Source: a virus
Reading direction: 5' to 3' (one strand)
Length of the DNA: 44,452 nt
IMG/VR virus record: IMGVR_UViG_3300010288_000002
Span: 1-44,452 of that record
In this document: positions 19,436-41,017 of the stretch, piece after piece
Layout: the number at the start of each line of letters is the position of its first letter
Position numbering within the stretch: the stretch's first letter is position 1
The notes under the pieces: model-generated
What the model was told of the DNA's origin: nothing
Seen by the model: only the letters and a program-made list of their open reading frames with translations
Databases searched by the model: none
Translations under genes and position numbers: made by a program

Positions 19436-19540
19436 TCACCTCTTATAATAACCTAAACTCACCACTCGACCAAGAACGTTATTTGTCGTACAAGTGAGAG
19501 ATGATTTGAAAGAAATCTTGTCTCGGTGAATATCAACCAT
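19436..19540 (-). CDS. Small protein between terminase and tail gene
   Basis: A 34-residue basic ORF, MVDIHRDKISFKSSLTCT and on to VVSLGYYKR. The ATG overlaps the large terminase stop (TGATG) and AAGGTGG lies just upstream; its own stop is three bases before the next ATG. Tight packing on both sides supports a real, translationally coupled gene of unknown function. Confidence 0.55.
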   Translation of the reverse strand: MVDIHRDKISFKSSLTCTTNNVLGRVVSLGYYKR

Positions 19541-21675
19541 CATTCCACCTTCTCCCATTCGCCTGATTGAACATCATCCATCCCATCAAAGAACCCAATA
19601 GGGCTCAATTCTTCCATCAAATCCTCAGAGCTTTCTTCAATGAACGTCTTACGGAAATCTTTCTGCATGATTTCCTTGAAAAACTCTTGTCCCGTTGCCC
19701 AAGCAAAAACAACAAGCGCCATGACCGTATCATCGTGGCACATCTCATCAGCTTCGTATGAATTGTTCTTTGAGATGAATGTGCTGAATTCTTGAATCGT
19801 TGTCCAATCTCGCAATTCATATTTATTCGACTCAATCAATGCCTTGATGATAGAACAACCTTCGCGCTTTGTAGACTTTGTGGTGCGAACACCATTACGT
19901 CCGTTCTTCCAAGATCCGAGAACAATTTTGCCTTTCGATTCACCTGTGGTCAATAGGTTTTCATATTCCTCATCAAAGTAAATTGCATCAGCTACCGCCT
20001 CACCAATGTCATTGATTTCCACAAGGACATAACCGTTGTTGTATTTCTTAGCAATCTCCACAATGATTCGAGGCAAGAGATAGTGGTTTGTCTTGTTATC
20101 ACGGAACATTGCCACTTGTTTGAACGGATACTCTGTAATGTCCGTGACTTGGATAACAGAGTAGTCAATGCCCGCACCTCGAGAACAATCTACACTTAGG
20201 AAGTAGACATGATCTGGCTTTGGGTGTTCATACACCTTCAATGAACCGCTTTGAGCCACAGGTTCACGGTGCACCAATCGTCTCAATGTTGCAGGTGATA
20301 GCAACGTGCTCGCTGATCCTAGGAACTGCGCTTCGAATTCTTGTTCCCACGATTCTTGACCAATGTTAGCAATAGTCTTCTCTTTCCATGCCTCATCACG
20401 GCCAGGAACGTCATACCAGCTGATTTCAAACGGAACGAATTCAGAACGACCCGTAGTTGCCTCGACCCACATCTTGTAGAAGTGGTTCATACCCTTAGGC
20501 GTAGAGAACACCGATATCTTTGACTCCTTACCAGATGAAATGGTAGGATACACGGACTCGAAGAACTCTGTCGCTTGGTTTGGCGGGACGAAGGCGAATT
20601 CATCAAGAACCAACCAGCTTATGCTTGTGTTCGAAGATATTACATCATTGGCAAAATAACACTGGTCACCAACATTTCCTTCAATTATTTCCCAATCTTC
20701 TGATGGCTTCTCTAAAAGATTAAGACTGACAATCTCATCTGTTTTCTTGTTCTTTGCAAATTGAACCCTACCCTCATTGCCCGTCTCAACATATGCGGGA
20801 TCGTACATAAACCCCCGTTCTTCAATCTCCTCGCATTCCAAAATCTCGGCTTTTCCAGTTGCAGTGATGACTTCCATCCCTACTGTCAAATCTTCAGCGT
20901 TAATCCAACCCAGACTGGTAAATAGAGGATGGTTTTTACTTAATCTCAACTCTTTACCGTGACTCAAAAATAACCTGATATGGGATTCACTCGGATAACG
21001 AATCACTGAAGAGAAGTTACTCCAACCTGAAGGCGTTTTTAACAGGTAATCCTTATTCAAAGAAACATCGGGTGAGGATTTATCCAACATCTCAAAGAGA
21101 CCTTCTATTTCAATGTCAAACTCCTCACCTGAAGATATTTTCTTGACATTTAATATGATACTACCGTGTATGCAACCACGAATCGCGCTTGATGATGTTG
21201 AAGCAGCAATGACCTTACATCCGTTGCCTAGGCTGAATGAACCTTTGTTCCAAGATGTGACGCCGACCTGCATCCACAAAGGCAGATGTTCGTACATCAT
21301 TTGGATACGGCTCAAAATTTCACGAGCGGTCGCTGCCTTGTTTGCAAGGATGGCAACGGTCTTATGTTCTTGGAACAGAATGTAGTGCAGGATACAGGCT
21401 GCGGTTGTGGTAGACTTACCAGATTGTCTAGGCAACTTCAAGAGAACGTAACGGTTCTCCATTGTCAAGCGAACAATGTCTTTTTGATAATAGTAGAGCT
21501 TGAACGGCACAAGACCTTTGTCAATATGCACAATCTTGGCATAGTTTTCAATGAAGTAAATTGGATCGCTGTAACACTTCACCAACTCTTGAACCTGCCA
21601 CGGCTCGAAATTGATTTCGACACCCGCCGCTTTCAGGTTCGGGTTGTTTAGGTAAACTTTAACGTCTTGATTCAT
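19540..21675 (-). CDS. 17: Terminase large subunit (T4 gp17-like) with mini-intein
   Basis: ATPase-nuclease motor that cuts concatemers and pumps DNA into the head. The 711-residue precursor has Walker A LPRQSGKSTTT (K87), Walker B WLVLDEFAFV after the intein, and nuclease-domain acidic motifs FLSVDCSRGAGIDYS, VLVEINDIGEA and MCHDDTVMAL. Residues 168-349 are an in-frame intein; removal leaves about 529 residues. The ATG at 21675 lacks a strong ribosome binding site, and a late promoter-like AATAAATA lies upstream. In T4 it follows gene 16; here gene 16 is about 13 kb away on the opposite strand. If splicing failed, DNA packaging should fail. Confidence 0.95.
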   Translation of the reverse strand: MNQDVKVYLNNPNLKAAGVEINFEPWQVQELVKCYSDPIYFIENYAKIVHIDKGLVPFKLYYYQKDIVRLTMENRYVLLKLPRQSGKSTTTAACILHYILFQEHKTVAILANKAATAREILSRIQMMYEHLPLWMQVGVTSWNKGSFSLGNGCKVIAASTSSSAIRGCIHGSIILNVKKISSGEEFDIEIEGLFEMLDKSSPDVSLNKDYLLKTPSGWSNFSSVIRYPSESHIRLFLSHGKELRLSKNHPLFTSLGWINAEDLTVGMEVITATGKAEILECEEIEERGFMYDPAYVETGNEGRVQFAKNKKTDEIVSLNLLEKPSEDWEIIEGNVGDQCYFANDVISSNTSISWLVLDEFAFVPPNQATEFFESVYPTISSGKESKISVFSTPKGMNHFYKMWVEATTGRSEFVPFEISWYDVPGRDEAWKEKTIANIGQESWEQEFEAQFLGSASTLLSPATLRRLVHREPVAQSGSLKVYEHPKPDHVYFLSVDCSRGAGIDYSVIQVTDITEYPFKQVAMFRDNKTNHYLLPRIIVEIAKKYNNGYVLVEINDIGEAVADAIYFDEEYENLLTTGESKGKIVLGSWKNGRNGVRTTKSTKREGCSIIKALIESNKYELRDWTTIQEFSTFISKNNSYEADEMCHDDTVMALVVFAWATGQEFFKEIMQKDFRKTFIEESSEDLMEELSPIGFFDGMDDVQSGEWEKVE
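20629..21174 (-). mobile_element. Mini-intein in the large terminase
   Basis: A 182-residue insertion starting with Cys (CIHGSIILNVKKISS) and ending FANDVISSN before a Thr. Block B is clear (LSKNHPLFTSLGWINAEDLTVGMEVI), and blocks F/G correspond to QCYFANDVISSN. The flanking exteins SSSAIRG and TSISWLVLDEF join to restore the T4 gp17 sequence (DAVRGNSFAMIYIED). The usual penultimate His is Ser. No LAGLIDADG or HNH endonuclease motif is present, so it is not self-mobile. Confidence 0.9.
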
Positions 21676-25963: not shown

Positions 25964-26887
25964 ATGAGTCTATTAGAAAAGCTTAAGAAAAATTCAAAAA
26001 TCAAAGAAACCTCTGTCCTAGAGAATTCCACATTCTTCAACAAAAAAGATGAAATACCCACACCGATTCCTGCTCTTAATATTGCTCTTAGCGGCTCTAT
26101 TGATGGGGGATTGCAACCTGGGCTACTCCAGGTGGCTGGCCCTTCAAAGCATTTTAAGTCCAGCATCTCCTTGGTGATGGCTGCCGCCTACATGAAGAAG
26201 TATCCAGATGCCGTTCTGATGTTTTATGATTCAGAATTCGGTTCTCCCAAGTCATACTTCCAAGCGTTCGGCATTGATACGACTCGTGTCCTTCATACGC
26301 CCATCACCGACATTGAGCAATTGAAGTTTGACATTATGAGCCAGTTGGAGCAAATTCAACGTGGCGACAAGGTCATCTTCTTGATTGACTCTATTGGCAA
26401 CCTTGCATCTAAGAAAGAGGTTGAGGATGCGCTGAACGAAAAGTCCGTGGCTGATATGTCACGCGCTAAGCAGTTGAAATCATTGTTCCGAATGGTTACA
26501 CCCCACCTGACAATCAAGGACATTCCTATGATTGCGATTAACCATGTCTATCAAGAGATTGGTATGTTCCCCAAGGCGATCGTCTCTGGCGGTTGCCTGA
26601 CGGAAAATACTAAAATCCGAATGGCTGACGGCACGACCCGAAACATTCAAGACGTCAAGGAAGGCGAGCTAGTTCAAACACGTTCTGGTCCAAGGAAAGT
26701 GACGGCAACTTGGAATCCCGAAACCCTAGAGGAAGGAACCCCTGAATGTTTTGAGTTGGTGTTTGAGGATGGCTACACGGTTCGTTGTTCTGACAAACAT
26801 CCGTTTCTTGTTAGAATGGGTGACGGCTCGGAGAAGTGGGTGATGGCAAAGGACCTCACTTACGATATGGAGTTTATCCGTCACTAA
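25964..26887 (+). CDS. uvsX: UvsX recombinase N-terminal half fused to split intein IntN
   Basis: Residues 1-210 are the N-terminal part of the RecA-like UvsX recombinase, with Walker A GPSKHFKSS (about 59-67), Walker B VIFLIDSIGN (about 137-146) and the end KAIVSGG, which in T4 continues TGVMYSAD. Residues 211-307 are IntN: CLTENTKIRMADGTTRNIQD (block A) and CSDKHPFLV followed by MAKDL (block B), ending at a TAA. The ATG at 25964 has AGGTGA upstream. The chain cannot be active without its C-half at 27938. UvsX drives strand invasion in recombination-dependent replication and repair. Confidence 0.93.
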   Translation: MSLLEKLKKNSKIKETSVLENSTFFNKKDEIPTPIPALNIALSGSIDGGLQPGLLQVAGPSKHFKSSISLVMAAAYMKKYPDAVLMFYDSEFGSPKSYFQAFGIDTTRVLHTPITDIEQLKFDIMSQLEQIQRGDKVIFLIDSIGNLASKKEVEDALNEKSVADMSRAKQLKSLFRMVTPHLTIKDIPMIAINHVYQEIGMFPKAIVSGGCLTENTKIRMADGTTRNIQDVKEGELVQTRSGPRKVTATWNPETLEEGTPECFELVFEDGYTVRCSDKHPFLVRMGDGSEKWVMAKDLTYDMEFIRH

Positions 26888-26894
26888 CAGGCCA

Positions 26895-26943
26895 GTGCCT
26901 CCTGAAAAAACAGTTTTTATATAAAAGTACATTCAGGAGGCAC
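26895..26943 (+). promoter_or_regulatory. Hairpin sequestering the endonuclease ribosome binding site, with late-like promoter in the loop
   Basis: GTGCCTCCTGAA (26895-26906) is the exact complement of TTCAGGAGGCAC (26932-26943), which contains the ribosome binding site. The loop holds TATAAAAG (26920-26927), six of eight matches to TATAAATA. A late transcript starting near 26933 would lack the left arm and be translatable. This is the arrangement known for T4 I-TevI. Confidence 0.75.
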
Positions 26944-26945
26944 AT

Positions 26946-27869
26946 ATGAAAAAACAAACGATAGAATGGTACAAGAAAAATTTCCCTTCACTTGACCTTA
27001 ACAAACAGCCATCAGATGAAGAAATGCTGATGATATATTCTGCTTTTGATAAAGACCTAAACCTCAAAAACCCCATTATCGTTTCAAAATTGCTTGCGCA
27101 CGGAAACGAACTAAGGGGAATGGTGGAAATTTACAAAATAATAAAGTCAATAGTTAATCCAAGTGGAAAACTGGGCGGGTCTAGACGAAGCAAAACATAT
27201 TGGTTGGTCCGGGGTTATTCTGAAGATGAAGCAAGACGCTTCACAAGTGAAATTCAAAAAGAAAATTCTCCGAGGTGTGTGGAATATTGGGTTAAGCGAG
27301 GCTACACTAAAGATGAGGCCATTGTAAAGGTAAAAGAGACCCAATCTCAGAACGCAATCAAATTTCATCAAAAAGTCAAATCAAATGGTTCATCCGTATC
27401 ACGCTGGAATAAGAATTACTGGATTGCTCGTGGTCTTTCAGAAGAAGAAGCCGCTGAAAAGGTAACAGCACTTCAAACAAGCAATGGCAACAAATATGCT
27501 CAAAAGTATTCAGCCGAAGAGCGAAGAAAACATCAACCATGGTGTGTAGAGTATTGGATTAGTCAAGGTAAAACTGAAGACGAGTATGCCGAATTTATGT
27601 CCTCTCGTTATGCATATTGCTCAAAATCATCGGTTAGATTTTTTGATAGCTTGTGTGAGGAAATTCAATTCGTTAAACCTCATTACGGTGAAAGAGAATT
27701 TGGTAAATTCATCAAAGGATTGGGGTATGTAAAATATGACTTTGTAGACACGGCTCTGAAAATTGTTATAGAATATGATAGCGAATTTTGGCATAGATCG
27801 GAAGAAGCAAAGCGTAGAGACGCAGTGAAACAAGAATTCATGGAAGGATTAGGGTATAAGGTTTTTTAG
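26946..27869 (+). CDS. Free-standing Vsr-like homing endonuclease
   Basis: Sits between the two uvsX halves. The C-terminal region IVIEYDSEFWHRSEEAKRRD fits the EDxHD (Vsr-like) homing endonuclease family of fractured genes. The first 220 residues contain about four repeats of the form YWxxRGxSxDEA (YWLVRGYSEDEA, YWVKRGYTKDEA, YWIARGLSEEEA, YWISQGKTEDEY), probable DNA-binding modules. The strong CAGGAGG before ATG 26946 is inside a hairpin. The frame stops at TAG in GGTTTTTTAG; one T fewer gives KVFRVQFEKHAKDPTNYVKQ and on to 27969, the expected C-terminus, so the gene is probably frameshifted. Expected role: cut intact uvsX alleles and spread the element. Confidence 0.82.
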   Translation: MKKQTIEWYKKNFPSLDLNKQPSDEEMLMIYSAFDKDLNLKNPIIVSKLLAHGNELRGMVEIYKIIKSIVNPSGKLGGSRRSKTYWLVRGYSEDEARRFTSEIQKENSPRCVEYWVKRGYTKDEAIVKVKETQSQNAIKFHQKVKSNGSSVSRWNKNYWIARGLSEEEAAEKVTALQTSNGNKYAQKYSAEERRKHQPWCVEYWISQGKTEDEYAEFMSSRYAYCSKSSVRFFDSLCEEIQFVKPHYGEREFGKFIKGLGYVKYDFVDTALKIVIEYDSEFWHRSEEAKRRDAVKQEFMEGLGYKVF

Positions 27870-27937
27870 AGTGCAATTTGAAAAGCATGCTAAAGACCCC
27901 ACAAATTATGTTAAGCAAATTGCAAAGGAAATAATGA

Positions 27938-28474
27938 ATGAAATTGGTAAGCAAGAAATCAATCGGTAACGTTCCCGTCTTTGATATTTCAGTTGATGAG
28001 GTCGAACACTACATCCTTGAAAATGGTCTCATAACTCATAATACCGGTGGATACTATTCTGCAAACGACATCTGGATCATTGGTCGTTCTCAAGAGAAAG
28101 ATGGCACGGACGTTGCAGGTTATACTTTCACCATCAACATCGAGAAGTCTCGTCGCGTCAAAGAGAAGTCCAAGATTCCTTTGACTGTTATGTTTGACGG
28201 GGGCATTACCCGTTGGTCGGGTTTGCTAGACCTTGCCCTTGAGGGAGGCTTCGTTACTAAGCCAAGTATGGGTTGGTATCAGAAGGTTGATCCTGATACG
28301 GGCGAATTGGTTGAAGGCAAGTATCGTGCCAAGGAAACAAACACGGCAGAATTTTGGGAAGACATCCTGAAGAACCAGAAGTTCAAGGACTTCATCTGTA
28401 AGAAATACCAATTGGTGATGAACGAATCCATCATGTCTGATGAACATGGAGAAGCCGATGCAGACGAAAAATGA
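27938..28474 (+). CDS. uvsX: Split intein IntC fused to UvsX C-terminal half
   Basis: Residues 1-35 are IntC (blocks F and G: VPVFDISVDEVEHYILENGL, then ITHN) followed by the +1 residue Thr. Residues 36-178 are the UvsX C-half: TGGYYSANDIWIIGRSQEKD, YTFTINIEKSRRVKEKSKIP and FDGGITRWSGLLDLALEGGF, matching T4 UvsX in order. Trans-splicing would give a 353-residue UvsX (T4: 391). AAAGGA is nine bases upstream of ATG 27938. An ATG four bases earlier is in another frame, which is the probable tail of the endonuclease reading frame. Next gene overlaps the C-terminus. Confidence 0.92.
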   Translation: MKLVSKKSIGNVPVFDISVDEVEHYILENGLITHNTGGYYSANDIWIIGRSQEKDGTDVAGYTFTINIEKSRRVKEKSKIPLTVMFDGGITRWSGLLDLALEGGFVTKPSMGWYQKVDPDTGELVEGKYRAKETNTAEFWEDILKNQKFKDFICKKYQLVMNESIMSDEHGEADADEK

Positions 28475-28799
28475 TGTCTATGCAATTATCCAAGATTTGA
28501 GGAAGGTTGTGCCTTCTTTTTATTCGATCCCTGTGGAGAGCGATGAAGAAGCTCGCATGATGGACGAGAAGAAAATCATCGGAGCCGTTGTGCTTCAGGA
28601 TGGTGACTTCAAGGACCATATCATCATTCTCCGTAGTGTCGAGGTGAAAGGTTCGCAGCTTGAGATTGACTACACCGCAGTGAACAAGGACAAACAGAAC
28701 GTGGAGTCGGATGAACTGAACGTTATCGTGGGTAATCTCATCAATTATTTACTAGCTATGGAACGTCTGAAAGAATTTGACAAACAAGATGATTCCTGA
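28458..28799 (+). CDS. Small protein after uvsX, unknown
   Basis: A 113-residue protein beginning MQTKNDVYAIIQDLRKVVPS, with beta strands in the middle (VVLQDGDFKDHIIILRSVEV) and a helical end. No family is recognised. ATG 28458 has GGAG six bases upstream and overlaps the UvsX C-half; ATGs at 28440 and 28446 are alternatives. Its position between uvsX and the gp41 helicase gene suggests a replication or recombination accessory role, which is inference only. Confidence 0.65.
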   Translation: MQTKNDVYAIIQDLRKVVPSFYSIPVESDEEARMMDEKKIIGAVVLQDGDFKDHIIILRSVEVKGSQLEIDYTAVNKDKQNVESDELNVIVGNLINYLLAMERLKEFDKQDDS

Positions 28800-28828
28800 T
28801 ATAATTGTCCTTTGGTCTAGGAGAATAA

Positions 28829-30256
28829 ATGATAGAAGAAGTAATCTTGGAGAACCTGTTGCACAATGATGAGTATATGCGAAGGGTTCTCCCTTTTTTG
28901 AAGGATGAGTATTTTGGCGAGAACGCCCATTCTATCGTCTTCACAAAAATCTCAGAGTTCGTTTCCAAGTACAACAAGGCACCTACTCAAGATGAGCTAC
29001 GTATTGAAATCAAGGACACGAAAGGACTAAAACAATCAGACTATGAGACTGCGGTTGATCTTGTCAATAGACTGACAAAGCGTAGCAAAGCGCCCTCGAT
29101 TGATTGGCTTGTTGAGCATACGGAAAAGTTCTGCAAGGACAAGGCACTGTTCAATGCCATTGTAGACGCCGCTGCAATGATAGAGGACGATAAGGCGGAC
29201 GTAGGCCAGATCCCGGACATTTTGAAGAATGCTCTATCGGTGTCATTTGATACCAACATCGGTCACGACTTCATGACCATGATTGAGCAACGCTACAAAA
29301 TGTTGCATCAAATCAATGAATACAAGATTCCTTTTGACATTGAAGCACTGAACGAAATCACAAACGGAGGTTTGCCTCGGAAAACTCTTGCAGTTGTATC
29401 AGCATCAACTGGTGCTGGTAAATCTCTGTTCCTTTGTCATTGTGCGGCACGGAACCTCTTAGCAGACAAGAACGTCCTTTATATCACCATGGAAATGGCA
29501 GAAGAACGTATCTCGGAGCGCATTGACGCTAACATCTTGAACATGAGGATTCAAGATCTACCTAATCTGTCATTGCAAGAATACAGACGTCGGTTGAACA
29601 AGGCATTGGATGGCTGTAAGGGTCGCTTGATTGTCAAAGAGTACCCCACCGCTAGTGCGGGTGTTACGCAATTCAGGGCGCTCATCAATGAGCTGAAGTT
29701 GAAGAAAGACTTCGTGCCAGACATCATCTACGTTGACTACATCAACATCTGTTCTTCAAGCCGATTCAAGGCAGGCATGGTGAACTCTTATCAATATGTC
29801 AAGGCCATTTGTGAAGAACTACGTGGTCTGGCTATTGAGTACAATCTGCCTATTGTTTCAGCTACTCAGTTGAATCGTGAGGGCACGGATACGACAGATG
29901 TTGGTCTGAAGGAAATTTCAGACAGCCATGGCCTAGCCATGACCGCCGATATCCTTTTGGCTATGATTCGTACTGAAGAACTAGACGAGCAGAATGTTGT
30001 CATGTTCAAACAGTTGAAGAATCGCTTTTCAGACATGGCAAGCAAGCTCCGTTTCGTTGTAGGTATTGATCGCTCGAAGATGAGGTTGTTTGATGCAGAG
30101 TCTGAGGTTCAGATGACAAAGACACGACCCGTTTCAAACGGAAGTCCTAAGCGTAAAGATGAGGAGATTGACCAAGATACAGGGGAAATCAAGTTCAAGA
30201 AGCCAGCTTTGGGTGTAGGCAACAAGCCAAGGTTCTCAGGCATCAAGGTAGAATAA
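28829..30256 (+). CDS. 41: Replicative DNA helicase (T4 gp41-like, DnaB family)
   Basis: Hexameric 5'-3' helicase of the phage replisome. The 475-residue product has Walker A SASTGAGKSL (191-200), the H1a-like ITMEMAEERISERI, Walker B DIIYVDYINI and a SATQLNREG motif, all RecA-like DnaB features. Length equals T4 gp41 (475). The C-terminus is basic and unstructured, ending FSGIKVE. The gp41 gene is a known site of split inteins in other phages, but here it is intact while neighbouring uvsX is fractured. It probably works with a primase not seen in the window. Confidence 0.95.
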   Translation: MIEEVILENLLHNDEYMRRVLPFLKDEYFGENAHSIVFTKISEFVSKYNKAPTQDELRIEIKDTKGLKQSDYETAVDLVNRLTKRSKAPSIDWLVEHTEKFCKDKALFNAIVDAAAMIEDDKADVGQIPDILKNALSVSFDTNIGHDFMTMIEQRYKMLHQINEYKIPFDIEALNEITNGGLPRKTLAVVSASTGAGKSLFLCHCAARNLLADKNVLYITMEMAEERISERIDANILNMRIQDLPNLSLQEYRRRLNKALDGCKGRLIVKEYPTASAGVTQFRALINELKLKKDFVPDIIYVDYINICSSSRFKAGMVNSYQYVKAICEELRGLAIEYNLPIVSATQLNREGTDTTDVGLKEISDSHGLAMTADILLAMIRTEELDEQNVVMFKQLKNRFSDMASKLRFVVGIDRSKMRLFDAESEVQMTKTRPVSNGSPKRKDEEIDQDTGEIKFKKPALGVGNKPRFSGIKVE

Positions 30257-30261
30257 AGTTC

Positions 30262-30289
30262 TAGACAACTCCTTGTTCTATGCTATAAT
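30262..30289 (+). promoter_or_regulatory. Early promoter, TAGAC type
   Basis: TTCTAGACA with TAGACA at 30262-30267, 16-base spacer, TATAAT at 30284-30289, followed by TGAGGCAT. Confidence 0.75.
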
Positions 30290-30315
30290 TGAGGCATAGG
30301 GACAAGGAGCATATC

Positions 30316-30559
30316 ATGGAAACTGAAATCATTAATGGGCATAAAGCGGTTGTCCGACACATTTTCAAAAAAGGAAGATCTTGAGGTTGGTTCTCGTTGG
30401 ACTGCTGCCTATGGTTCCAAAGGCGACGTTGTTGTCATTCGAAACATTGTGAAAACAGAAGAACTCTGGTGGGTTCAATATGGATATCATGGCTCAGACA
30501 CGACCTACGAAAAAGACTACTTCTCTTTTCAGTGTCACTACTGCAAGATTGTTGAATAA
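30316..30559 (+). pseudogene. Small early gene frameshifted in an A6 run
   Basis: ATG 30316 follows AAGGAG and a good promoter but its frame (METEIINGHKAVVRHIFKKG) ends at TGA 30382-30384. The +1 frame continues EDLEVGSRWTAAYGSKGD to TAA 30557-30559. Removing one A from the six-A run 30367-30372 joins them as HIFKKEDLEVG, about 80 residues. A start at ATG 30335 in the second frame (74 residues) has no ribosome binding site. One-base expansion of a homopolymer is the simplest explanation. Confidence 0.55.
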
Positions 30560-30561
30560 AG

Positions 30562-30586
30562 GACAAGACGCCTCGTGCGTCTTGTC
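30562..30586 (+). terminator. Hairpin terminator
   Basis: GACAAGACGC (30562-30571), loop CTCGT, GCGTCTTGTC (30577-30586): a perfect 10-bp stem, followed by TTAAAATT. Confidence 0.65.
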
Positions 30587-30616
30587 TTAAAATTGAATCA
30601 ACAAGGAAGGAACATC

Positions 30617-30901
30617 ATGAACAAACAAAACATCGCTTTTGAAAAATTCTACTCAAAAGTAGCAGTTAAAGACAACTAAATTAAGCCGAAGATTGTCCGT
30701 ATGGATAATTGGGCGGCTGATAATTACGAAAGCGAAGATTTGTTTGCTGGTATGTCAGACGCTGGTTATCGGCGCTGAATCGGTCAAAAAGGATCTGATG
30801 GTAAAGTGAAATGGCGAATTACCGAGTCCTACGGACCAAATAGTACCGAGTACACATATTCCGGAATTACCCAAGAAGAGTTTGAAGCACTGGAGTTTTA
30901 A
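30617..30901 (+). pseudogene. Small early gene with two in-frame stop codons
   Basis: AAGGAAGG precedes ATG 30617. One frame runs for 94 codons to TAA 30899-30901, interrupted by TAA at 30677-30679 and TGA at 30776-30778. The pieces, NKQNIAFEKFYSKVAVKDN, IKPKIVRMDNWAADNYESED and IGQKGSDGKVKWRITESYG, are protein-like throughout and no frame change is needed. The stop overlaps the DNA ligase ATG (TAATG), as for an intact operon member. Two point mutations in a dispensable gene, or stop-codon readthrough, are possible. Confidence 0.6.
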
Positions 30902-32259
30902 TGACCACATTTGCAACCCTTATTGAAATTTTGAACAGCGACGGTTCTCGTTTGTTCAAGGAAGCTAAGCTGAAAGAGTTTGGCGAGAAGTATCCGAACT
31001 TTGTTCGCCTGCTGAATCGAACCTACAGCCCAGAGTATGTCTACGGCATCAAGAAGGTTCCCGAGGTGGTGAATTTCGGTGTTAAGAATTTGAACGATGC
31101 TTGGCCCTCAGTCGAAGCAACACTGGATCGTCTAACAAGCCGTGCAATTACAGGTAATGCTGCCCGAGATGAGGTCGCATCGCTCATGTCTTCACTGCTA
31201 GAACAAGAGGCAAAAGTTCTAGCAAATCTCCTGAAAGGTGACCTACGTTGTGGTATCAATGTGGGTTTAATCAATCGAGTTTTCCCTGGTACGATTCCCG
31301 AATATCCTTACATGCGCTGCTCCTTGCAGAAAGGTAGCAACATTGATAAGTTCAATTGGAAAGACGGAATCTTCTCCCAAGAGAAAGCAGACGGCATGTT
31401 CGCCAACGTGTTCGTTTATGCTGATCGCTCAGTCAAGATCACAAGTCGTAACGGCACAACGTTCGCCAATGTTGAGTTCCAAGCGTTCATTGATGAATTC
31501 TTGAAGGTAGCCGATGTAGGATATTGTTACCATGGCGAACTTCTTGTGGCAGAAAAACATCCGGATGGTTGGAAGATTTTGCCTCGTGAGATCGGCAACG
31601 GTGTTTTGAACAGTGTTCTCAAGGGTGGTTCGTTTGAGAAGAACCAGAAACCGTTCTACTTCATCTGGGACAAGGTGCCTGTTGAGAATGCAGTAGCAGG
31701 CGGCAAATATGAAGTTCCGTATCGTGAGCGTTATAAAAAGGTTGAGAAGCTGAAAGGCCAATACTTCCTTCCCATCCCCACCAAGATCGTCTTCTCCTTG
31801 AAAGAAGCATTTGAACATTATGTTCAAATGACCGCCATGGGATATGAAGGCACGGTCATCAAGAACCCCGAAGCAATTTGGGCAGATGGTACGTCCAAGG
31901 ATCAAATCAAGATGAAGGTGGAAGCCGAGGTTGATCTGATTGTCCGAGGCTTCAATCCAGGCAACGGCAAAAATGAAAAATGGTTTGGTTCGTTGATTTG
32001 TGAGAGCTCCGATGGTTTGGTGCAGACTAATGTATCGGGCTTCAGCGATGCGGACCGTGAGCGTATCACCAAAGAGATGGACGAATGGATTGACAAGAAA
32101 ATCATCACCGTTCGGGCAAACTCTTTGATGCCCAATGACAATGGTCCTCGGCGTCTGTTCCTCCCACGGTTTGTTGAGGAACGTCTTGATAAGAGCGAAG
32201 CGGATAGTCTTGAGAAGATTATTCAAATCTTTGATGAAGCGATGAGGGGTGAGAAATGA
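30901..32259 (+). CDS. 30: ATP-dependent DNA ligase (T4 gp30-like)
   Basis: Seals nicks during lagging-strand synthesis, recombination and repair. The 452-residue product has motif I SQEKADGMFANV (K162), motif III YCYHGELLVAE, motif IIIa PFYFIWDKVP, motif IV GYEGTVIKNP and motif V DQIKMKVEAEVDL, followed by an OB domain. Length is near T4 DNA ligase (487). Its ATG overlaps the previous stop (TAATG), so expression may once have been coupled to the now interrupted upstream gene. The following small gene overlaps its end. Confidence 0.95.
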   Translation: MTTFATLIEILNSDGSRLFKEAKLKEFGEKYPNFVRLLNRTYSPEYVYGIKKVPEVVNFGVKNLNDAWPSVEATLDRLTSRAITGNAARDEVASLMSSLLEQEAKVLANLLKGDLRCGINVGLINRVFPGTIPEYPYMRCSLQKGSNIDKFNWKDGIFSQEKADGMFANVFVYADRSVKITSRNGTTFANVEFQAFIDEFLKVADVGYCYHGELLVAEKHPDGWKILPREIGNGVLNSVLKGGSFEKNQKPFYFIWDKVPVENAVAGGKYEVPYRERYKKVEKLKGQYFLPIPTKIVFSLKEAFEHYVQMTAMGYEGTVIKNPEAIWADGTSKDQIKMKVEAEVDLIVRGFNPGNGKNEKWFGSLICESSDGLVQTNVSGFSDADRERITKEMDEWIDKKIITVRANSLMPNDNGPRRLFLPRFVEERLDKSEADSLEKIIQIFDEAMRGEK

Positions 32260-32573
32260 GCGAGAAAATTTGTGACGAGTGCGAGACAGTAGCGCATTGC
32301 AAACAATTTGGTTGTATCCCTAAGGTTATGGATGCTTTCAATCTGTTCAAACAGAAGAACTCTAAGTTGGGTGTGAACTATTACATCCGCCGCATTATGA
32401 AAAGCAAAACGCCCGTAGAGTTTTTGAAGAATCAAGCTGATCTGGTGTTGTTCCTGAACCGTAGGTTTGGGTATGAACAAGAACAATACCTTGAGAAATA
32501 TAAAGAGTTGCTTAGTGCATTTGAGCCCAGGCCTTCAAAGCCTCATTATTCGGAAGAACCTCCAGAAATTTGA
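32256..32573 (+). CDS. Small Cys-containing protein, unknown
   Basis: A 105-residue protein with an N-terminal cysteine cluster (ICDECETVAHCKQFGC) that could bind a metal, followed by helices rich in K, L and F and a Pro-rich tail. No family recognised. The ATG overlaps the DNA ligase stop (ATGA). Its last bases form part of the left arm of the following terminator. Confidence 0.7.
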   Translation: MSEKICDECETVAHCKQFGCIPKVMDAFNLFKQKNSKLGVNYYIRRIMKSKTPVEFLKNQADLVLFLNRRFGYEQEQYLEKYKELLSAFEPRPSKPHYSEEPPEI

Positions 32574-32601
32574 AAGAAAGCCCCTCGAGGGGCTTTCTTT
32601 C
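32572..32601 (+). terminator. Strong hairpin terminator
   Basis: GAAAGAAAGCCCC (32572-32584) and its exact complement (32589-32601) flank a TCGA loop; the distal stem is A/T-rich with TTTCTTTC on the 3' side. It ends the early operon and lies two bases before a perfect late promoter. Confidence 0.8.
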
Positions 32602-32602
32602 C

Positions 32603-32610
32603 TATAAATA
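32603..32610 (+). promoter_or_regulatory. Late promoter TATAAATA
   Basis: Exact T4 late consensus, 25 bases before the neck gene start. Confidence 0.85.
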
Positions 32611-32634
32611 ATAAAAACAACTAGGTGGATAAAC

Positions 32635-33381
32635 ATGTCTGCATCTAAACCAGAAACAAGAAAAGAGTTCAAAGCGTATTGCCTGCGCCGTTTGGGTGCG
32701 CCCGTTATTCAAATCAACGTAGACAATCAACAGGTCGAGGATTTGGTCGATGCTGCCTTGGAATATTTTGGTCGAAATCACCATGACGGCAGCATCCAAA
32801 TGTATGTGCCAGTCGAAGCAACAGCTCAAGTCATTCAAGACAAATACTTCCCGATTGATGACTCATTCGTAGGTGTTCAGCGAGTCTTGGAAACGTCATA
32901 TCAAGGATCAAGCCAATTTTCTATTGAATGGCAATTGATGGCTAGCACATATCCTTTTGCACTAAAAGGCGATGGTCTTTTAACATACAGCATGGCGATG
33001 TCTTATCGTGAGACATTGAAGAACGTTGTTTCTGGAAAAACGAAGCACATTCGCTTTAATCGTCATATGGACAGACTGTTCATTGATATTGACTGGAATA
33101 CGGTTCGTGAAGGTCAGATTTTTGTTGTTGAAGCAACAAGAGTTCTCGACCCCGACGAATTCCCACGAGTGTGGAATGACCCTTTTCTCAAAAAATATGC
33201 CACTGCTCTAATCAAGAGACAGTGGGGTAACAACCTTCGTAAGCTACGAAACGTTCAGTTGGTTGGCGGCGTGACAATTGATGCAGAAGGTATACTTCAA
33301 GAAGCAGAAGCAGAGATCAAAGAACTAGAAGAATCCATGATCTTAGAACACCAAGAACCAGTAGACTTCATAATGGGCTAG
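32635..33381 (+). CDS. 13: Neck protein gp13
   Basis: Head completion/neck protein that closes the packaged head before tail joining. The 248-residue product starts with the family pattern TRKEFKAYCLRRLGAPVIQI, NVDNQQVEDLVDAALEYF and keeps the FPIDDSFVGVQRVL and RFNRHMDRLFIDIDW segments of T4-like gp13. TAGGTGG precedes the ATG. It is the first gene of a 13-14-15-16 block driven by the late promoter, in T4 order. Confidence 0.93.
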   Translation: MSASKPETRKEFKAYCLRRLGAPVIQINVDNQQVEDLVDAALEYFGRNHHDGSIQMYVPVEATAQVIQDKYFPIDDSFVGVQRVLETSYQGSSQFSIEWQLMASTYPFALKGDGLLTYSMAMSYRETLKNVVSGKTKHIRFNRHMDRLFIDIDWNTVREGQIFVVEATRVLDPDEFPRVWNDPFLKKYATALIKRQWGNNLRKLRNVQLVGGVTIDAEGILQEAEAEIKELEESMILEHQEPVDFIMG

Positions 33382-33385
33382 AGCA

Positions 33386-34033
33386 ATGGCAGTTTCACCA
33401 TATTTTCAGCACATCAATGCAAACAACGAGCAAGACCTTTATCACGAACTTGCAACAGAGTTAGTGCAGCTTGCTGGCGTAGATGTTCATTACATCAAGG
33501 TAGAACAGGTCAATGATGCGAACTACGACTCATTGTTTGGCGAAAACAGATTTGAGAAGCTAGGCCAATCTGTTGTTATTGAAATGTATCTAAAGGACTT
33601 CGAGCAACCCTACGGCAACTATGACCTATATGCCAAGTTTGGTTTGGTACAACCTAACACTTGTACGTTCTTGGTTGGCGTTAGACGTTTTGATGGGGTG
33701 TTTGGACATAGACCAAGGGAAGGCGATTACATCTATATTCCCGCTTGGGATTACCTAGGCCCTGATGACATTTTTAGAATCGCCAAGGTTGATATTTCAG
33801 ACTTTCAATTCAAGGCATTGGGAAGTCCTGTTTATTATTTCATCAAGTGCGAAAGAGCCAAGTACAATCATCAACAGGTCAATACGGGCGAACCTGTATT
33901 GGATGCAGGTACAGCTGGGCTATTGAACAATGACAGTGTGGCTAATGATACAAACGCAGACAACGACCCATTACAACAACTTTCAAACGATTTTATTCAG
34001 TTTGACGAGCGCAATCCATTCGGGAATCCATAA
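33386..34033 (+). CDS. 14: Neck protein gp14
   Basis: Neck protein acting with gp13 in head completion. The 215-residue product begins VSPYFQHINANNEQDLYHEL and has AGVDVHYIKVEQVNDANYD and FGENRFEKLGQSVVIEMYLK, a pattern typical of T4-like gp14. The C-terminal part ends QFDERNPFGNP. It starts four bases after gene 13 and its stop overlaps the ATG of gene 15 by one base. Confidence 0.92.
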   Translation: MAVSPYFQHINANNEQDLYHELATELVQLAGVDVHYIKVEQVNDANYDSLFGENRFEKLGQSVVIEMYLKDFEQPYGNYDLYAKFGLVQPNTCTFLVGVRRFDGVFGHRPREGDYIYIPAWDYLGPDDIFRIAKVDISDFQFKALGSPVYYFIKCERAKYNHQQVNTGEPVLDAGTAGLLNNDSVANDTNADNDPLQQLSNDFIQFDERNPFGNP

Positions 34034-34773
34034 TGCTAGGGCACGCACCATTTTATCACCAACACTATAAAAAGTATGTGTCTATCTTCGGCACGTTGTT
34101 CAACGACATTTCTATTGTCCGTAAGAACGCCGAACCAGGTGGGGCAGACAAAATAATCAAAGTGCCTTTGTCATTCGTTCAGAAGGATAAGGCATTGGAG
34201 CGTTTCATTCAAAACCCTGCATTGAGAGCAGCGTGGAATAACTCATTCCCTAGAATGGCGTTTGAGGCAGGATCACCTTCATATGCGGGTTACAGAAAAG
34301 AGAACACTGTAAACCACATTACAAGGACCCCCAATGGCAATCTTGCTAAGATGCAATATGCTCCTGCGCCTTATGATATAAACATGACCCTGACTATCTT
34401 CGCAGGATATTTTGAGGACGGATTGCAAGTGGTTGAACAGATTCTACCCTTCTTCCAACCCGAATATACCGTAGCAGCAAAGGAAATACCTGAATTGGGA
34501 TTAGAGCGAGACATTCATATTGTTTTGAATTCTGTAACCCTAAACGATAACGTGGAGGGTCCTTTTGAAGATGCCAGATTGATTGAATGGACTCTTGACT
34601 TCACGGTAAAGGGGTTCTTTTATGGACCAGTAACAGATAAAGCAATCATCACCAAGATTGACGCAAACACATTCTTTGAACCAGATTTCGATACTCCTCA
34701 TGTTATTCAAAGATTTGAGGGCGTCCCACCAAATGGCCCTATCGCCGAAACTGTAATAGAGAATAGCGCATAA
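34033..34773 (+). CDS. 15: Tail sheath stabiliser / completion protein gp15
   Basis: Terminal tail protein that caps the sheath and joins the neck. Residues 1-60 contain YKKYVSIFGTLFNDISIVRK and KVPLSFVQKDKALERF, and the centre has INMTLTIFAGYFEDGLQVVE and LPFFQPEYTV, all characteristic of T4-like gp15. Length 246, compared with 272 in T4. The start overlaps gene 14; gene 16 follows after two bases. Confidence 0.92.
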   Translation: MLGHAPFYHQHYKKYVSIFGTLFNDISIVRKNAEPGGADKIIKVPLSFVQKDKALERFIQNPALRAAWNNSFPRMAFEAGSPSYAGYRKENTVNHITRTPNGNLAKMQYAPAPYDINMTLTIFAGYFEDGLQVVEQILPFFQPEYTVAAKEIPELGLERDIHIVLNSVTLNDNVEGPFEDARLIEWTLDFTVKGFFYGPVTDKAIITKIDANTFFEPDFDTPHVIQRFEGVPPNGPIAETVIENSA

Positions 34774-34775
34774 TC

Positions 34776-35189
34776 ATGTTTGAAAAACTAGAAGAAACGT
34801 TCGACCTGATTCCAGCCACTAAACCTGAGGCTAAGCCACCTTTGGTCATTGAAAACGAAACACCAGAAGATCTCAAGGACAAGGAAGATCAAGAACTCGC
34901 TCGTCAGACGTTCAAAAAAATGATCCAAAAGTCCGAGAACATGCTTGATGCTTTGGTGCAGATTGCAGAAAGCACGGAACATCCAAGGGCATTTGAGGTG
35001 GCTGCTAACTTGGTGAAGACAATCACAGATGTTGCAAGCAAGCTAGACGAAGTTTCTTCAAGACGCACAAAGGCAAAAGAGAAGGGCTCCGAAAGCCTTT
35101 CTACAAATATCAACCACAATCACTTGTACGTGGGTTCCTCGGAGGAACTAATGAAATTGATTAGGAACAAAGGACAATCAAGCGAATAA
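34776..35189 (+). CDS. 16: Terminase small subunit gp16
   Basis: DNA-recognition subunit of the packaging motor. The 137-residue product keeps the central coiled region of gp16: MLDALVQIAESTEHPRAFEV, AANLVKTITDVASKLDEV, followed by a basic tail and YVGSSEELMKLI. Unlike T4, the large subunit does not follow; the last 12 bases overlap tail to tail with a minus-strand baseplate gene and no terminator separates them. Confidence 0.9.
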   Translation: MFEKLEETFDLIPATKPEAKPPLVIENETPEDLKDKEDQELARQTFKKMIQKSENMLDALVQIAESTEHPRAFEVAANLVKTITDVASKLDEVSSRRTKAKEKGSESLSTNINHNHLYVGSSEELMKLIRNKGQSSE

Positions 35190-36494
35190 GATGTCGGTTT
35201 CAGCGTTGATTGTCGCTTCTTCTTGAAGTATTGTTTTCACAAACATCTTCAAACCAGCGATATGCAAAAGGGCTTTCAAAGATTCTTCTTGCGCCTTCGC
35301 ATCAGCTTTCGATTGAATCTCGTAAGAATATTCTTGATAATAATCCGAATCATGTAGCTTTGCATACCCCGTAGATGGGGTTGATTGGGGTTTCACCCAA
35401 TACTTGACAGTGTTGGTAACGCCTTGAGTAAATACAATCTGTGTTCCGTTGGGCAATGTAACGGTCAAATCTGAACCATTGGTGAATTTGTCGTTCTGAA
35501 TGATTGACAAGCTCTTGATTTTTCTGAACTCAGAATCAAATATAGGTTCAAGAATTGCGCCCGTGCCCGAAGAGCTTTCAACGATGATATCTACGTCATC
35601 GTGGCTGAATCCGAATCCTGAACGTTGAACGGCGATGCTTGTAATTGCACCAGAACCATCCACACCCGTAACCTTGGCTTTAAATCCTGTTCCGGAATAT
35701 TGAGACGTTGAAGTGATTACATCATCAACCTCATATCCTGTTCCGCCGTCTGTAATAGTCAAACCCACGATTCGGCCGTAGTTGATTTTGTCCACTTTCA
35801 ATATCACGCCGTTGGTATGAATGATTGATGAATCATACCAATCTTGAGTTGAGGTGAATGATGACACCTTGAATATAGGTACAACTGTTACTGAGATGTT
35901 TTCATGGACAATGACCTCACCCACTTCAAATTCGCCGTTAGCTTCCTCGAAGTAAATATCGTAGAGATCACCAACCTTAACAACGTTAGACACAATAGCC
36001 TTGTAGCCATTGTTCAATCCAGTGATTTCCGCATTGATGAGATCGAACGGATTACCGCTTGTCGCAGAGGCTTTGAAAAATGTTTCTTTGTTCCAAACCG
36101 CTTCAGATGGTTTGAAGAGTTGAATTCGAGGGAAATATACTGAGGCTTCTTCGTTAAATACGGCTTTGAAGAAAATTCTATAGGATTCTTCGGTTCCTCT
36201 CAATTGATAAAACTCCTTGAGGAACTTAGCGAAGTGTCTAAAATTGGTTTTCAATTCAATTGGGAAGTTCTTGGCGTATGATGCTCTGTATGAAGGCAAC
36301 ATCTCCTCGATTACCAAATCAACGTCATTTGCTAATTTCATCGCCTCCATTGCAAGATCTGGCCCTTCGGTTGCTGACCAGGTGTAATAAGCACGAAGGA
36401 AATTCACAAATTTAGGGTAGTTCTCGATTACAAATTTTGGGAGAGCGGAAACCATTTGGCTTCCAGCCCTCGCTACAACGTTGATATTAGCCAT
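35178..36494 (-). CDS. Baseplate/virion structural protein after gp6
   Basis: A 438-residue protein beginning with a helical region (FVIENYPKFVNFLRAYYTWS) found in T4-like virion proteins, then FRHFAKFLKEFYQLRGTEESYRIF. The middle has two repeated glycine-rich units, ITDGGTGYEVDDVITSTSQYSGTGF and VQRSGFGFSHDDVDIIVESSSGTGA, a common beta-repeat in phage tail proteins. The ATG overlaps the stop of gene 6, so it belongs to the 25-6 baseplate unit and may be a wedge component equivalent in place to gp7 or gp8. The exact role is unassigned. Confidence 0.72.
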   Translation of the reverse strand: MANINVVARAGSQMVSALPKFVIENYPKFVNFLRAYYTWSATEGPDLAMEAMKLANDVDLVIEEMLPSYRASYAKNFPIELKTNFRHFAKFLKEFYQLRGTEESYRIFFKAVFNEEASVYFPRIQLFKPSEAVWNKETFFKASATSGNPFDLINAEITGLNNGYKAIVSNVVKVGDLYDIYFEEANGEFEVGEVIVHENISVTVVPIFKVSSFTSTQDWYDSSIIHTNGVILKVDKINYGRIVGLTITDGGTGYEVDDVITSTSQYSGTGFKAKVTGVDGSGAITSIAVQRSGFGFSHDDVDIIVESSSGTGAILEPIFDSEFRKIKSLSIIQNDKFTNGSDLTVTLPNGTQIVFTQGVTNTVKYWVKPQSTPSTGYAKLHDSDYYQEYSYEIQSKADAKAQEESLKALLHIAGLKMFVKTILQEEATINAETDILFA

Positions 36495-38209
36495 TATACT
36501 GACCTCAATTCGACTGACAATCTATCCTTGTTCAAGACGATTGCTGTTGCGAAACCTGCTAGAATATCATCATTTGCGGGCGTCACAAAAACTTCCAATA
36601 CGTTTGTAGTTGTTTCTTGAATTTTAGTTGTATCTATAATAATCTTGCCTGTGTGATAATTGACTGTACCAATTGAGACTGTTCCTGCATAAAGGGTGCC
36701 ATCACCATTGTTATCTTCGATTGGATAGAATTCAGTCGTACCAGTCAAACGAACCTTGTTTGTTCTTACGCTGCCAGGAACAATGGCGTTTTCGAAAGCA
36801 AAGTCTGTCTGATTCAATGAATTGACAAGAGACAATGAATACTCTGCTCTTACACCTACAATGGCTCTTGAATAGTTCTTGATCTCAGCCAAGAGGTTTG
36901 AATAATAGAAGTCACTATCAAAAATTCCGAAGGTATTGTCAAAATAGGTTTCAACAAGATCAGTTATTTGTTTTGAGAAATTACTCAAGCCATTTGTTGC
37001 GTTCTTTCTGACTGAAGCATGAATAGTCATGTTCAAATTGATGAACTTAGGATCAACGATTACAGGTGCAATGCCTGCAACAGACCTAGAACGAATCTTT
37101 CTTTCAAGATCGCGCTTGTTTGTAGATGTTAGTTTTGTTAGGCTTTTTGGAATGATTGAGATGAATACCTTACCAAATTGTGGAGGGTTCAGTTCTTCAC
37201 CGCCCCATACTGCAACAGATTTGGCATAAGGGTAAATGTCATTCGTAACAGCGGCAAAATCTTCTTTGGTAATCGCTCTGTTCTGTGACTGATAGAAACG
37301 AGGTGCATTAAGCTTGATTGAAGATGTTGCTTCGGGTTCTGATCCGCCTGCTGATGCATTGATTGTCTCTACTGAAATGTCTGCGTTCTCATAACCCTCG
37401 AAGGTTCCAACTAGAGAGAATTGAGAGAAACCGTTTGCAGAACTTCCATTTGATTCTAAATATTCGCAATACACCACACCGTTCAATGTAGGCTTTTTGC
37501 CGAATACACCATCACCGAATTTCAATTCATAGAATCCGCCATCAGTTTCATAAACCCAAAACACGGTTGAATCTGAACCCACTTTATTGATGCCGTGGGC
37601 TTTTTCGTAGACAGTATATTCATTTGAACTAATGTTATCAAAAACACCCACCCTCAAAGTATTGGTGTCAATCTTCTTTGAAGGGATGATGTATCTACGC
37701 TCGTCTGAGGTAACGTCAAATGAATACGCTTTAATGATGCCTTCAAACACTCCAACCTCGTCATTACGAAACACACCCGATTCATCTAGGTGTAGGTTGT
37801 AGTCGTCAAGTGTTGTAAAGATGAATTGCTGAGATGAAGATTTGGCAATGAATTTTGTACCACGAGGCATTAACAATGAGGTAGATTGGTTACCTGGGTC
37901 ATTAACTGTAATTGATAGCACTGCTCTTGATGCCGTAGTTGATCTTGGGGTGTAACCCAATAGCTTGGCTCTTGATACAACGTTAGAACGCAAAATGGCC
38001 GAATCAATTTCAGCCTCGTTTGCAAGCATGTTGGCTAGATAAGCCGTATGTTGAGAATTGTACGCCAATAGGTCAAGGATAATTGAAAGCCCAGAGCCTT
38101 CAAAATTGTAATCTGTAAATTCGTCCTGATTTCGTAGAAACGCCTTTAAATTCTCCTTAATGTCGGAGAATTCCATTGCCGTCAGATTAATTAGAGCCCT
38201 TTCTGCCAT
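36494..38209 (-). CDS. 6: Baseplate wedge protein gp6
   Basis: Core baseplate wedge subunit (gpJ-like fold in other phages). The 571-residue product opens with FSDIKENLKAFLRNQDEFTD YNFEGSGLSIILDLLAYNSQ-type sequence, then HTAYLANMLANEAEIDSAIL and RAKLLGYTPRSTTASRA, the recognisable N-terminal pattern of gp6. The C-terminal half includes the QNRAITKEDFAAV segment. It follows gene 25 after five bases. Confidence 0.93.
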   Translation of the reverse strand: MAERALINLTAMEFSDIKENLKAFLRNQDEFTDYNFEGSGLSIILDLLAYNSQHTAYLANMLANEAEIDSAILRSNVVSRAKLLGYTPRSTTASRAVLSITVNDPGNQSTSLLMPRGTKFIAKSSSQQFIFTTLDDYNLHLDESGVFRNDEVGVFEGIIKAYSFDVTSDERRYIIPSKKIDTNTLRVGVFDNISSNEYTVYEKAHGINKVGSDSTVFWVYETDGGFYELKFGDGVFGKKPTLNGVVYCEYLESNGSSANGFSQFSLVGTFEGYENADISVETINASAGGSEPEATSSIKLNAPRFYQSQNRAITKEDFAAVTNDIYPYAKSVAVWGGEELNPPQFGKVFISIIPKSLTKLTSTNKRDLERKIRSRSVAGIAPVIVDPKFINLNMTIHASVRKNATNGLSNFSKQITDLVETYFDNTFGIFDSDFYYSNLLAEIKNYSRAIVGVRAEYSLSLVNSLNQTDFAFENAIVPGSVRTNKVRLTGTTEFYPIEDNNGDGTLYAGTVSIGTVNYHTGKIIIDTTKIQETTTNVLEVFVTPANDDILAGFATAIVLNKDRLSVELRSV

Positions 38210-38214
38210 TTTCT

Positions 38215-38604: not shown

Positions 38605-38634
38605 TTTATTGAATCTCTACGAAACCTCTCCAGC

Positions 38635-38642
38635 TATTTATA
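38635..38642 (-). promoter_or_regulatory. Late promoter TATAAATA for the baseplate genes
   Basis: Exact T4 late consensus on the minus strand. Its upstream five bases overlap the last codons of phoH. Confidence 0.85.
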
Positions 38643-39342: not shown

Positions 39343-39369
39343 CTAAACTCCTTGTTTGTTAAGAAAAGA

Positions 39370-39397: not shown

Positions 39398-39426
39398 GAT
39401 TCGCATATCATGTAAATATGCTTCAT

Positions 39427-41005: not shown

Positions 41006-41017
41006 AACTAACTCCTT

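What the first reader, a model, noticed from the sequence alone, without database searches (positions are those of the whole stretch)
25964..28474. Fractured uvsX: a split intein with a homing endonuclease gene between the halves
Seen: UvsX N-half (210 aa) fused to a 97-aa IntN starting with Cys; a separate gene with Vsr-like endonuclease features; then a 35-aa IntC ending in His-Asn followed by Thr and the 143-aa UvsX C-half. Joining the exteins gives SGG-TGG, the conserved UvsX sequence. Known: fractured genes with split inteins and Vsr-like endonucleases were described for gp41, ribonucleotide reductase and IMPDH in metagenomic phages. Inference: active recombinase requires trans-splicing, and the element is a mobile unit targeting the L2-adjacent site of UvsX. 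I do not know a described uvsX example.
Basis: partly seen in the sequence, partly recalled or inferred. Interest (0 to 1): 0.95.

Follow-up and report, generated by a model that had tools for sequence, protein, structure and literature searches.

The report
Split-intein uvsX with decaying homing endonuclease
This T4-like phage makes its DNA-recombination protein UvsX in two pieces that must be stapled together by a split self-splicing element, with the gene for a DNA-cutting enzyme parked between them; the same arrangement turns out to be common in many phages, and in this one the cutting enzyme's gene appears to be broken.

Summary
uvsX is cut after SGG. The N-half carries a 97-aa IntN starting with Cys, and the C-half is preceded by a 35-aa IntC ending His-Asn|Thr. 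Trans-splicing is the best explanation; splicing itself is inferred.

It is not a first case. The same fractured uvsX, at the same codon, occurs in about 25 GenBank phage records and about 60 non-redundant loci. All 62 analysed keep Cys1, His-Asn and Thr/Ser+1. I found no paper describing it. The window's closest relative (82% identical) has an intact uvsX without the element, and the element comes and goes repeatedly on the UvsX tree.

Three corrections or additions:
(1) The endonuclease, an EDxHD/Vsr-like enzyme, carries a frameshift at a T6 run that removes the end of its nuclease domain, so it is probably dead or dying. Other loci show nuclease remnants or none, with the intein intact.
(2) GIY-YIG, HNH and EDxHD nucleases all occupy this same split.
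(3) The endonuclease's ribosome-binding site lies in a strong hairpin. Across relatives, 32 of 48 endonuclease genes have a T4-type late promoter just upstream (IntC starts: 0 of 60). This is the I-TevI/mobE control layout applied to a split intein.

The parts
25964..26593 (+). UvsX N-extein (210 aa, Walker A GPSKHFKS, ends ...KAIVSGG)
   Evidence: PHROG UvsX-like recombinase 4e-73; 3io5 1e-68; alignment A1
26594..26887 (+). IntN, 97 aa, Cys1 nucleophile, block-B-like CSDKHPFLV, then stop
   Evidence: NCBIfam intein_Nterm above cut-off; IntN profile finds the gp41-1 intein 6qaz 2e-7; Cys1 in 62/62 relatives
26895..26906 (+). 5' arm of the hairpin GTGCCTCCTGAA that pairs with the endonuclease RBS
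   Evidence: 12-bp perfect inverted repeat; dG -22.2 kcal/mol, z -4.3, 0 of 200 shuffles as stable
26918..26927 (+). TATATAAAAG in the hairpin loop: lies where relatives carry the late promoter NATAAATA; degenerate here
   Evidence: L114 has TATAAATAG in the aligned stretch; genome-wide NATAAATA upstream of structural genes
26932..26943 (+). 3' arm TTCAGGAGGCAC containing the Shine-Dalgarno AGGAGG of the endonuclease
26946..27869 (+). EDxHD/Vsr-like homing endonuclease gene, 307 aa as sequenced: repeats of a YW..RG-type module, then C-terminal nuclease domain, truncated
   Evidence: Pfam MTES_1575 5e-4 and DUF559 4e-3, both below cut-off; 37% identical to intact L114 enzyme; fold of the L114 enzyme matches I-Bth0305I 3r3p and Vsr 1vsr
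27862..27867 (+). T6 run at the frame break (GTT TTT TAG); conserved C-terminus continues in +1 frame
   Evidence: same in contig G001
27868..27969 (+). out-of-frame remainder of the endonuclease (RVQFEKHAKDPTNYVKQIAKEIMNEIGKQEINR*), overlaps the IntC start
   Evidence: aligns with L114 ...VIWESEYNKNKIDTITNLVKEI
27938..28042 (+). IntC, 35 aa, own ATG, ends His-Asn
   Evidence: NCBIfam intein_Cterm above cut-off; HN in 62/62 relatives
28043..28474 (+). UvsX C-extein, 143 aa, +1 Thr, then stop
   Evidence: Pfam T4_UVSX_C 3e-19; 3io5 2e-39

Best explanation
A class-1 split intein, split at the usual endonuclease position (97 + 35 aa), sits in uvsX between SGG and T at the end of the L2 DNA-binding region. 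Two polypeptides, UvsX(1-210)-IntN and IntC-UvsX(211-353), are made from the uvsX operon, associate through the intein, and trans-splice to give the 353-aa recombinase (inferred from complete conservation of the splicing residues). Because the intein interrupts a conserved functional loop, only exact splicing or exact loss keeps the phage alive, so the intein is retained. The endonuclease gene between the halves is an exchangeable passenger; GIY-YIG, HNH and EDxHD types occur at this same split. Its RBS is locked in a hairpin on the uvsX transcript. In relatives a late promoter is placed so that late transcripts (inferred) lack the 5' arm, so the enzyme would be made late, when recombination-dependent homing can copy the cassette into intact uvsX alleles. 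In this genome the nuclease has lost its C-terminal strand and helix by a frameshift and its late promoter is degenerate. It is most likely in the decay phase of the homing cycle, with the split intein remaining as an essential processing step.
For: Anatomy and profiles. Same site in 62 non-redundant loci with Cys1 62/62, HN 62/62, +1 Thr 59 / Ser 3, although the fused halves are only about 50-62% identical to the window's. Empty sites: about 20 non-redundant intact uvsX genes; sister L002 is 82% identical with SH-aLRT 100. Intein presence needs 14 changes on the UvsX tree, at least 8 on supported branches. Passenger swap: Pfam finds NUMOD3 in 37 and HNH in 9 of 48 endonucleases, GIY-YIG motifs by pattern, and MTES_1575/DUF559 in the window and L114. 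Fold match to I-Bth0305I (prob 0.99) and Vsr (0.97). Decay: frameshift here; frame break in TG1 (L061); truncation in VmeM-32 (L063); in-frame stop in L099; nuclease 3' remnants in L084, L089, L096, L153; contiguous inteins in L118, L132, L136. Regulation: RBS hairpin z -4.3. Across 48 loci mean fold z is -2.6 at endonuclease starts against 0.0 at IntC starts (p 6e-11); NATAAATA upstream in 32/48 against 0/60 and 2/58 (p 8e-16, 6e-13). The same layout is documented for I-TevI, segB and mobE (PMC2988022). A split intein in DNA polymerase of T4-like Aeromonas phages, beside a Vsr-like gene in Aes508, splices in vitro (PMC11923092; L159).
Against: No splicing was shown for any uvsX intein here. 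The window loop lacks a consensus late promoter, so late expression is not supported for this copy. The intein tree is weakly resolved and partly follows the host tree (Mantel r 0.44), so repeated loss may explain part of the patchiness. The T6 frame break could be bypassed by +1 slippage on UUU UAG or by transcriptional slippage. It was seen in two contigs that are otherwise 100% identical apart from one 21-base indel, so these may not be independent samples.
Confidence: 0.87

Rival explanations
1. The two UvsX pieces work as a non-covalent two-subunit enzyme, as the split NrdA of phage Aeh1 does; the intein halves are vestigial.
For: Precedent: split NrdA of Aeh1 and split gp43 of Aeromonas phage 25 are active without splicing (PMC2988022).
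Against: All splicing residues are kept in 62/62 loci although the fused halves are only about 50-62% identical to the window's; endonucleases decay in the same loci while the inteins do not; the break interrupts the L2 region of a filament-forming recombinase.
Confidence: 0.05
2. The endonuclease here is intact: its full length is produced by programmed +1 frameshifting (GTT TTT TAG) or slippage on the T6 run, and the element is actively mobile.
For: The +1 frame continues for 34 residues that align with the intact L114 enzyme; the frame break is in both contigs; U-rich UUU UAG is a plausible +1 slip site (general knowledge).
Against: Relatives L114 and L135 read through in frame without a shift; other endonucleases at this site are plainly broken or deleted; the late promoter is degenerate too.
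Confidence: 0.2
3. The frame break is a sequencing or assembly error at a homopolymer and the endonuclease is normal.
For: It is at a T6 run, a typical error site; only one base separates broken from intact.
Against: Identical in contig G001, which differs from the window by a 21-base indel elsewhere.
Confidence: 0.12

Closest known systems
Fractured uvsX in cultured T4-like phages (Escherichia phage HY03, ELT1; Salmonella pSe_SNUABM_01; Yersinia TG1; Proteus Pm5461, PM2; Shewanella Thanatos-1; Vibrio VmeM-32, EniLVp02; Pseudomonas PspYZU05)
   Same: Same gene, same insertion codon (GG|T), same split position, endonuclease between halves; IntN about 50-56% identical.
   Different: There the endonuclease is of GIY-YIG/SegG type; here it is EDxHD/Vsr-like and frame-broken.
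Fractured genes with split inteins and Vsr-like endonucleases (Dassa et al. 2009; gp41, NrdA, NrdJ, IMPDH; paper not held, known from citations and memory)
   Same: Same anatomy: ExtN-IntN / free-standing endonuclease / IntC-ExtC, with a Vsr-like nuclease.
   Different: Host gene is uvsX; endonuclease truncated; RBS hairpin noted here.
Split DNA polymerase of Aeromonas phage Aes508 (L159)
   Same: T4-like phage, split intein halves with a Vsr-domain gene between them; its nuclease hits the same Pfam families; the Aes123 PolB1 intein of this phage group splices in vitro (PMC11923092).
   Different: Host gene is polB; Aes123 intein is cysteine-less; endonuclease ORF overlaps the N-half stop, leaving no room for the hairpin.
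I-TevI, segB and Aeh1 mobE endonucleases
   Same: RBS sequestered by a hairpin on early/middle read-through transcripts; late promoter located so late transcripts lack the 5' arm (PMC2988022).
   Different: Those are in introns or free-standing genes, not in a split intein; the window's own promoter is degenerate.

Membership tests
Fractured gene with split intein | Conserved gene broken into two ORFs fused to IntN and IntC | tested here: met
Fractured gene with split intein | Exteins join to the sequence of intact homologues | tested here: met
   L002, L003, L005 and others contiguous at the same codon
Fractured gene with split intein | All catalytic splicing residues present (Cys1, block B His, HN, +1 Thr/Ser) | tested here: met
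Fractured gene with split intein | Free-standing endonuclease gene between the halves | tested here: met
   frame-broken
Fractured gene with split intein | Trans-splicing activity | not testable with these tools
   needs co-expression
EDxHD/Vsr-like homing endonuclease | Catalytic domain fold of I-Bth0305I/Vsr | tested here: met
   homologue L114 model hits 3r3p prob 0.99, TM(target) 0.61, and 1vsr prob 0.97; model confidence modest (pLDDT 59); Pfam hits below cut-off
EDxHD/Vsr-like homing endonuclease | Intact reading frame | tested here: not met
   frame break at 27862-27867
EDxHD/Vsr-like homing endonuclease | Site-specific cleavage of the intron/intein-less allele | not testable with these tools
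   needs protein and target DNA
T4-type hairpin-regulated endonuclease (I-TevI, segB, mobE) | RBS sequestered in a stable hairpin | tested here: met
T4-type hairpin-regulated endonuclease (I-TevI, segB, mobE) | Late promoter placed so late RNA lacks the 5' arm | tested here: inconclusive
   window has TATATAAAAG only; relatives 32/48 with NATAAATA

The most novel reading that the evidence does not exclude
Natural fracturing of inteins in phages is selected because it frees the homing endonuclease from its host gene's expression. The split lets a separate late promoter and an RBS-masking hairpin place nuclease production late in infection, and lets unrelated nuclease families replace each other, while uvsX is made early by trans-splicing. 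The conserved hairpin-plus-late-promoter module in fractured uvsX would be the signature of this.
Probability: 0.45. Interest if true: 0.65.

Novelty: new member of a known kind. Interest (0 to 1): 0.5.

Why it matters
It suggests that an essential recombinase of many T4-like phages, including ones grown on E. coli K-12, depends on protein trans-splicing, apparently undescribed in the literature I could search. The roughly 60 loci form a natural series (empty, contiguous intein, split without nuclease, split with one of three nuclease families, split with broken nuclease) at one codon, which makes the homing cycle and the question of why inteins become split testable. It is also a source of new natural split inteins.

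Tried and rejected
AlphaFold on the window endonuclease alone gave a useless model (pLDDT 42); only the three-sequence alignment led by L114 gave a usable nuclease domain. Sequence search of the endonuclease against PDB gave only chance hits (MARK kinases). The top profile hits of IntN in PDB (Tako8 beta-propeller) are repeats adding up and were ignored. The search for related loci with the window endonuclease found only the same phage. I tried to test whether fractured gp41 (gp41-1 type) has the same hairpin/late-promoter layout; in the six non-redundant contigs no IntC was found within 2.2 kb downstream of IntN, so it could not be tested. Rejected: chance similarity (profile E-values), ordinary contiguous intein (stop codon after IntN and separate ATG for IntC), gene-prediction artefact (same structure in dozens of independent genomes). 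L124 was counted as intein-less in the tree by mistake (its contig ends inside a contiguous-intein gene); removing it would lower the 14 changes by about one. Dassa et al. 2009 is not held in the library, so whether uvsX appears in its tables could not be checked.

Full report
OBSERVATION. The described anatomy is present exactly: UvsX residues 1-210 (25964-26593) run into a 97-aa IntN beginning with Cys (26594-26884, stop at 26887). An endonuclease ORF follows at 26946-27869. A 35-aa IntC with its own ATG (27938-28042) ends in His-Asn and is followed by Thr and the remaining 143 UvsX residues (to 28471, stop 28474). The downstream order, a small gene then gp41-like helicase, is that of T4-like phages. 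Curated profiles identify both UvsX halves and both intein halves above their cut-offs or with overwhelming E-values.

IT IS WIDESPREAD. Two PHROG families consist of just these fused halves: phrog_8337 matches N-half plus IntN, and phrog_18112 starts at IntC. tblastn against deposited phages finds the same fractured gene in about 25 records of T4-like phages of Escherichia, Salmonella, Shigella, Klebsiella, Enterobacter, Proteus, Yersinia, Pseudomonas, Shewanella and Vibrio. An IntN profile finds 80 loci in viral contigs, essentially all in uvsX at the same codon. After removing near-copies, 62 inteins at this site were compared. Cys1 is present in 62 of 62, His-Asn in 62 of 62, and the +1 residue is Thr in 59 and Ser in 3. 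I found no paper that describes a uvsX intein, but the arrangement has been deposited many times, and one depositor noted a HintC domain (VmeM-32).

MOBILITY AND HISTORY. The nearest relative of the window's UvsX is L002, 82% identical (89% over the N-half), with an intact, intein-less gene; the pair has SH-aLRT 100. On a tree of 80 UvsX proteins, presence of the intein needs 14 changes, at least 8 of them on supported branches (one row, L124, was mislabelled, see Tried and rejected). The intein tree is poorly resolved and only partly follows the hosts (Mantel r 0.44, p 0.001). So gains, losses and transfers are all likely, but their proportions are not settled. The endonuclease is also compositionally distinct: G+C 0.38 against 0.44-0.46 for the exteins.

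THE PASSENGER ENDONUCLEASE. At this one split, three nuclease families occur: GIY-YIG (for example HY03, L004), HNH with NUMOD3 (L009, L150) and an EDxHD/Vsr-like type (window, L114, L135). The window enzyme is 37% identical to the intact 345-aa enzyme of L114. A model of the L114 enzyme, modest overall but better in the nuclease domain, matches the catalytic domain of I-Bth0305I (3r3p, probability 0.99) and E. coli Vsr (1vsr, 0.97). A similar Vsr-domain gene lies between the split-intein halves of Aeromonas phage DNA polymerase.

THE FRAME BREAK. In the window the ORF stops at GTT TTT TAG. The conserved end of the domain (RVQFEKHAKDPTNYVKQIAKEI...) continues in the +1 frame to 27969 and aligns with the in-frame end of L114 and L135. 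The lost part is the last strand and helix of the predicted nuclease fold. The same T6 occurs in contig G001, identical over 15.3 kb but differing by a 21-base indel elsewhere, so a simple assembly slip is less likely but not excluded. Comparable damage occurs in other loci: frame break in TG1, truncation in VmeM-32, an in-frame stop in L099, partial nucleases in L116, L147 and L154, and only a 3' remnant in L084, L089, L096 and L153; three loci have a contiguous mini-intein. The inteins stay intact throughout. I infer that the intein is under selection because UvsX needs it, and the nuclease is not.

REGULATION. A perfect 12-bp inverted repeat (26895-26906 / 26932-26943) buries the AGGAGG of the endonuclease (dG -22.2, z -4.3). 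Testing all 48 non-redundant loci with an endonuclease: the mean folding z-score at the endonuclease start is -2.6, against 0.0 at IntC starts and -0.1 at uvsX starts (p about 1e-10). The T4 late-promoter motif NATAAATA lies within 70 bases upstream of 32 of 48 endonucleases, of 0 of 60 IntC starts and of 2 of 58 uvsX starts. NATAAATA is the likely late motif of this phage: it precedes many structural genes here at 24-45 bases. This is the arrangement described for I-TevI, segB and mobE, where early read-through RNA hides the RBS and late RNA, starting inside the hairpin, frees it (PMC2988022). The window has the hairpin, but its loop reads TATATAAAAG where L114 reads TATAAATAG, a further sign of decay. 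The loci are related, so the p-values overstate independence; however, the hairpin sequences differ and the pattern spans more than one nuclease family. In about half of the loci the folding signal is weak, and start codons were assigned by rule (longest ATG-started ORF), so individual cases are less certain than the group statistics.

MECHANISM, WHAT IS SHOWN AND WHAT IS INFERRED. Shown: gene structure, conserved splicing residues, empty sites, nuclease exchange and decay, hairpins and promoter motifs. Inferred: trans-splicing, late expression, homing into intact uvsX, loss of nuclease activity in this copy. No second RecA/UvsX gene was found in the window or in G001, together about 118 kb, so the spliced product is probably the only UvsX; the genome is incomplete.

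VERDICT. A well-read and real fractured uvsX, a new member of a known kind. The new content is the breadth of the family, the three nuclease types at one split, the decay series, and the conserved late-expression module.

Noticed in passing
window 19540-21675 (-): The terminase large subunit carries a contiguous intein (AIRG|CIHGS...VISSN|TSISW; Pfam Intein_splicing and PT-HINT weak), with Ser instead of His before the final Asn. So this phage has two intein-bearing essential genes.
   Followed up: partly
L059:2223-4432: A second kind of fractured uvsX: split intein plus endonuclease (I-TevI-type DNA-binding domain) inserted 13 residues upstream of the usual site (INHTYQ|TQEMF).
   Followed up: partly
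L062:2419-2586, L065:2419-2604, L071:2422-2604: A small unknown ORF of about 60 codons (ending ...YYIE.SYY..QG.V in L071, similar in L065) recurs between the endonuclease and IntC in several cultured phages.
   Followed up: no
L004, L009, L065, L067, L071 endonucleases: GIY-YIG and HNH endonucleases at this split share one C-terminal module (CPHCG...RWHxDNC), suggesting domain swapping that keeps target recognition.
   Followed up: no
window 26797-44452 versus contig G001 (IMGVR_UViG_3300025104_000001): A 90.8-kb contig extends this phage; it matches the window from 26797 on at 100% except one 21-base indel and continues about 73 kb beyond it.
   Followed up: yes
window 32603 (+), 38642 (-), 21714 (-), 18420 (-): NATAAATA late-promoter motifs 24-36 bases upstream of structural or packaging genes, as in T4.
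   Followed up: partly
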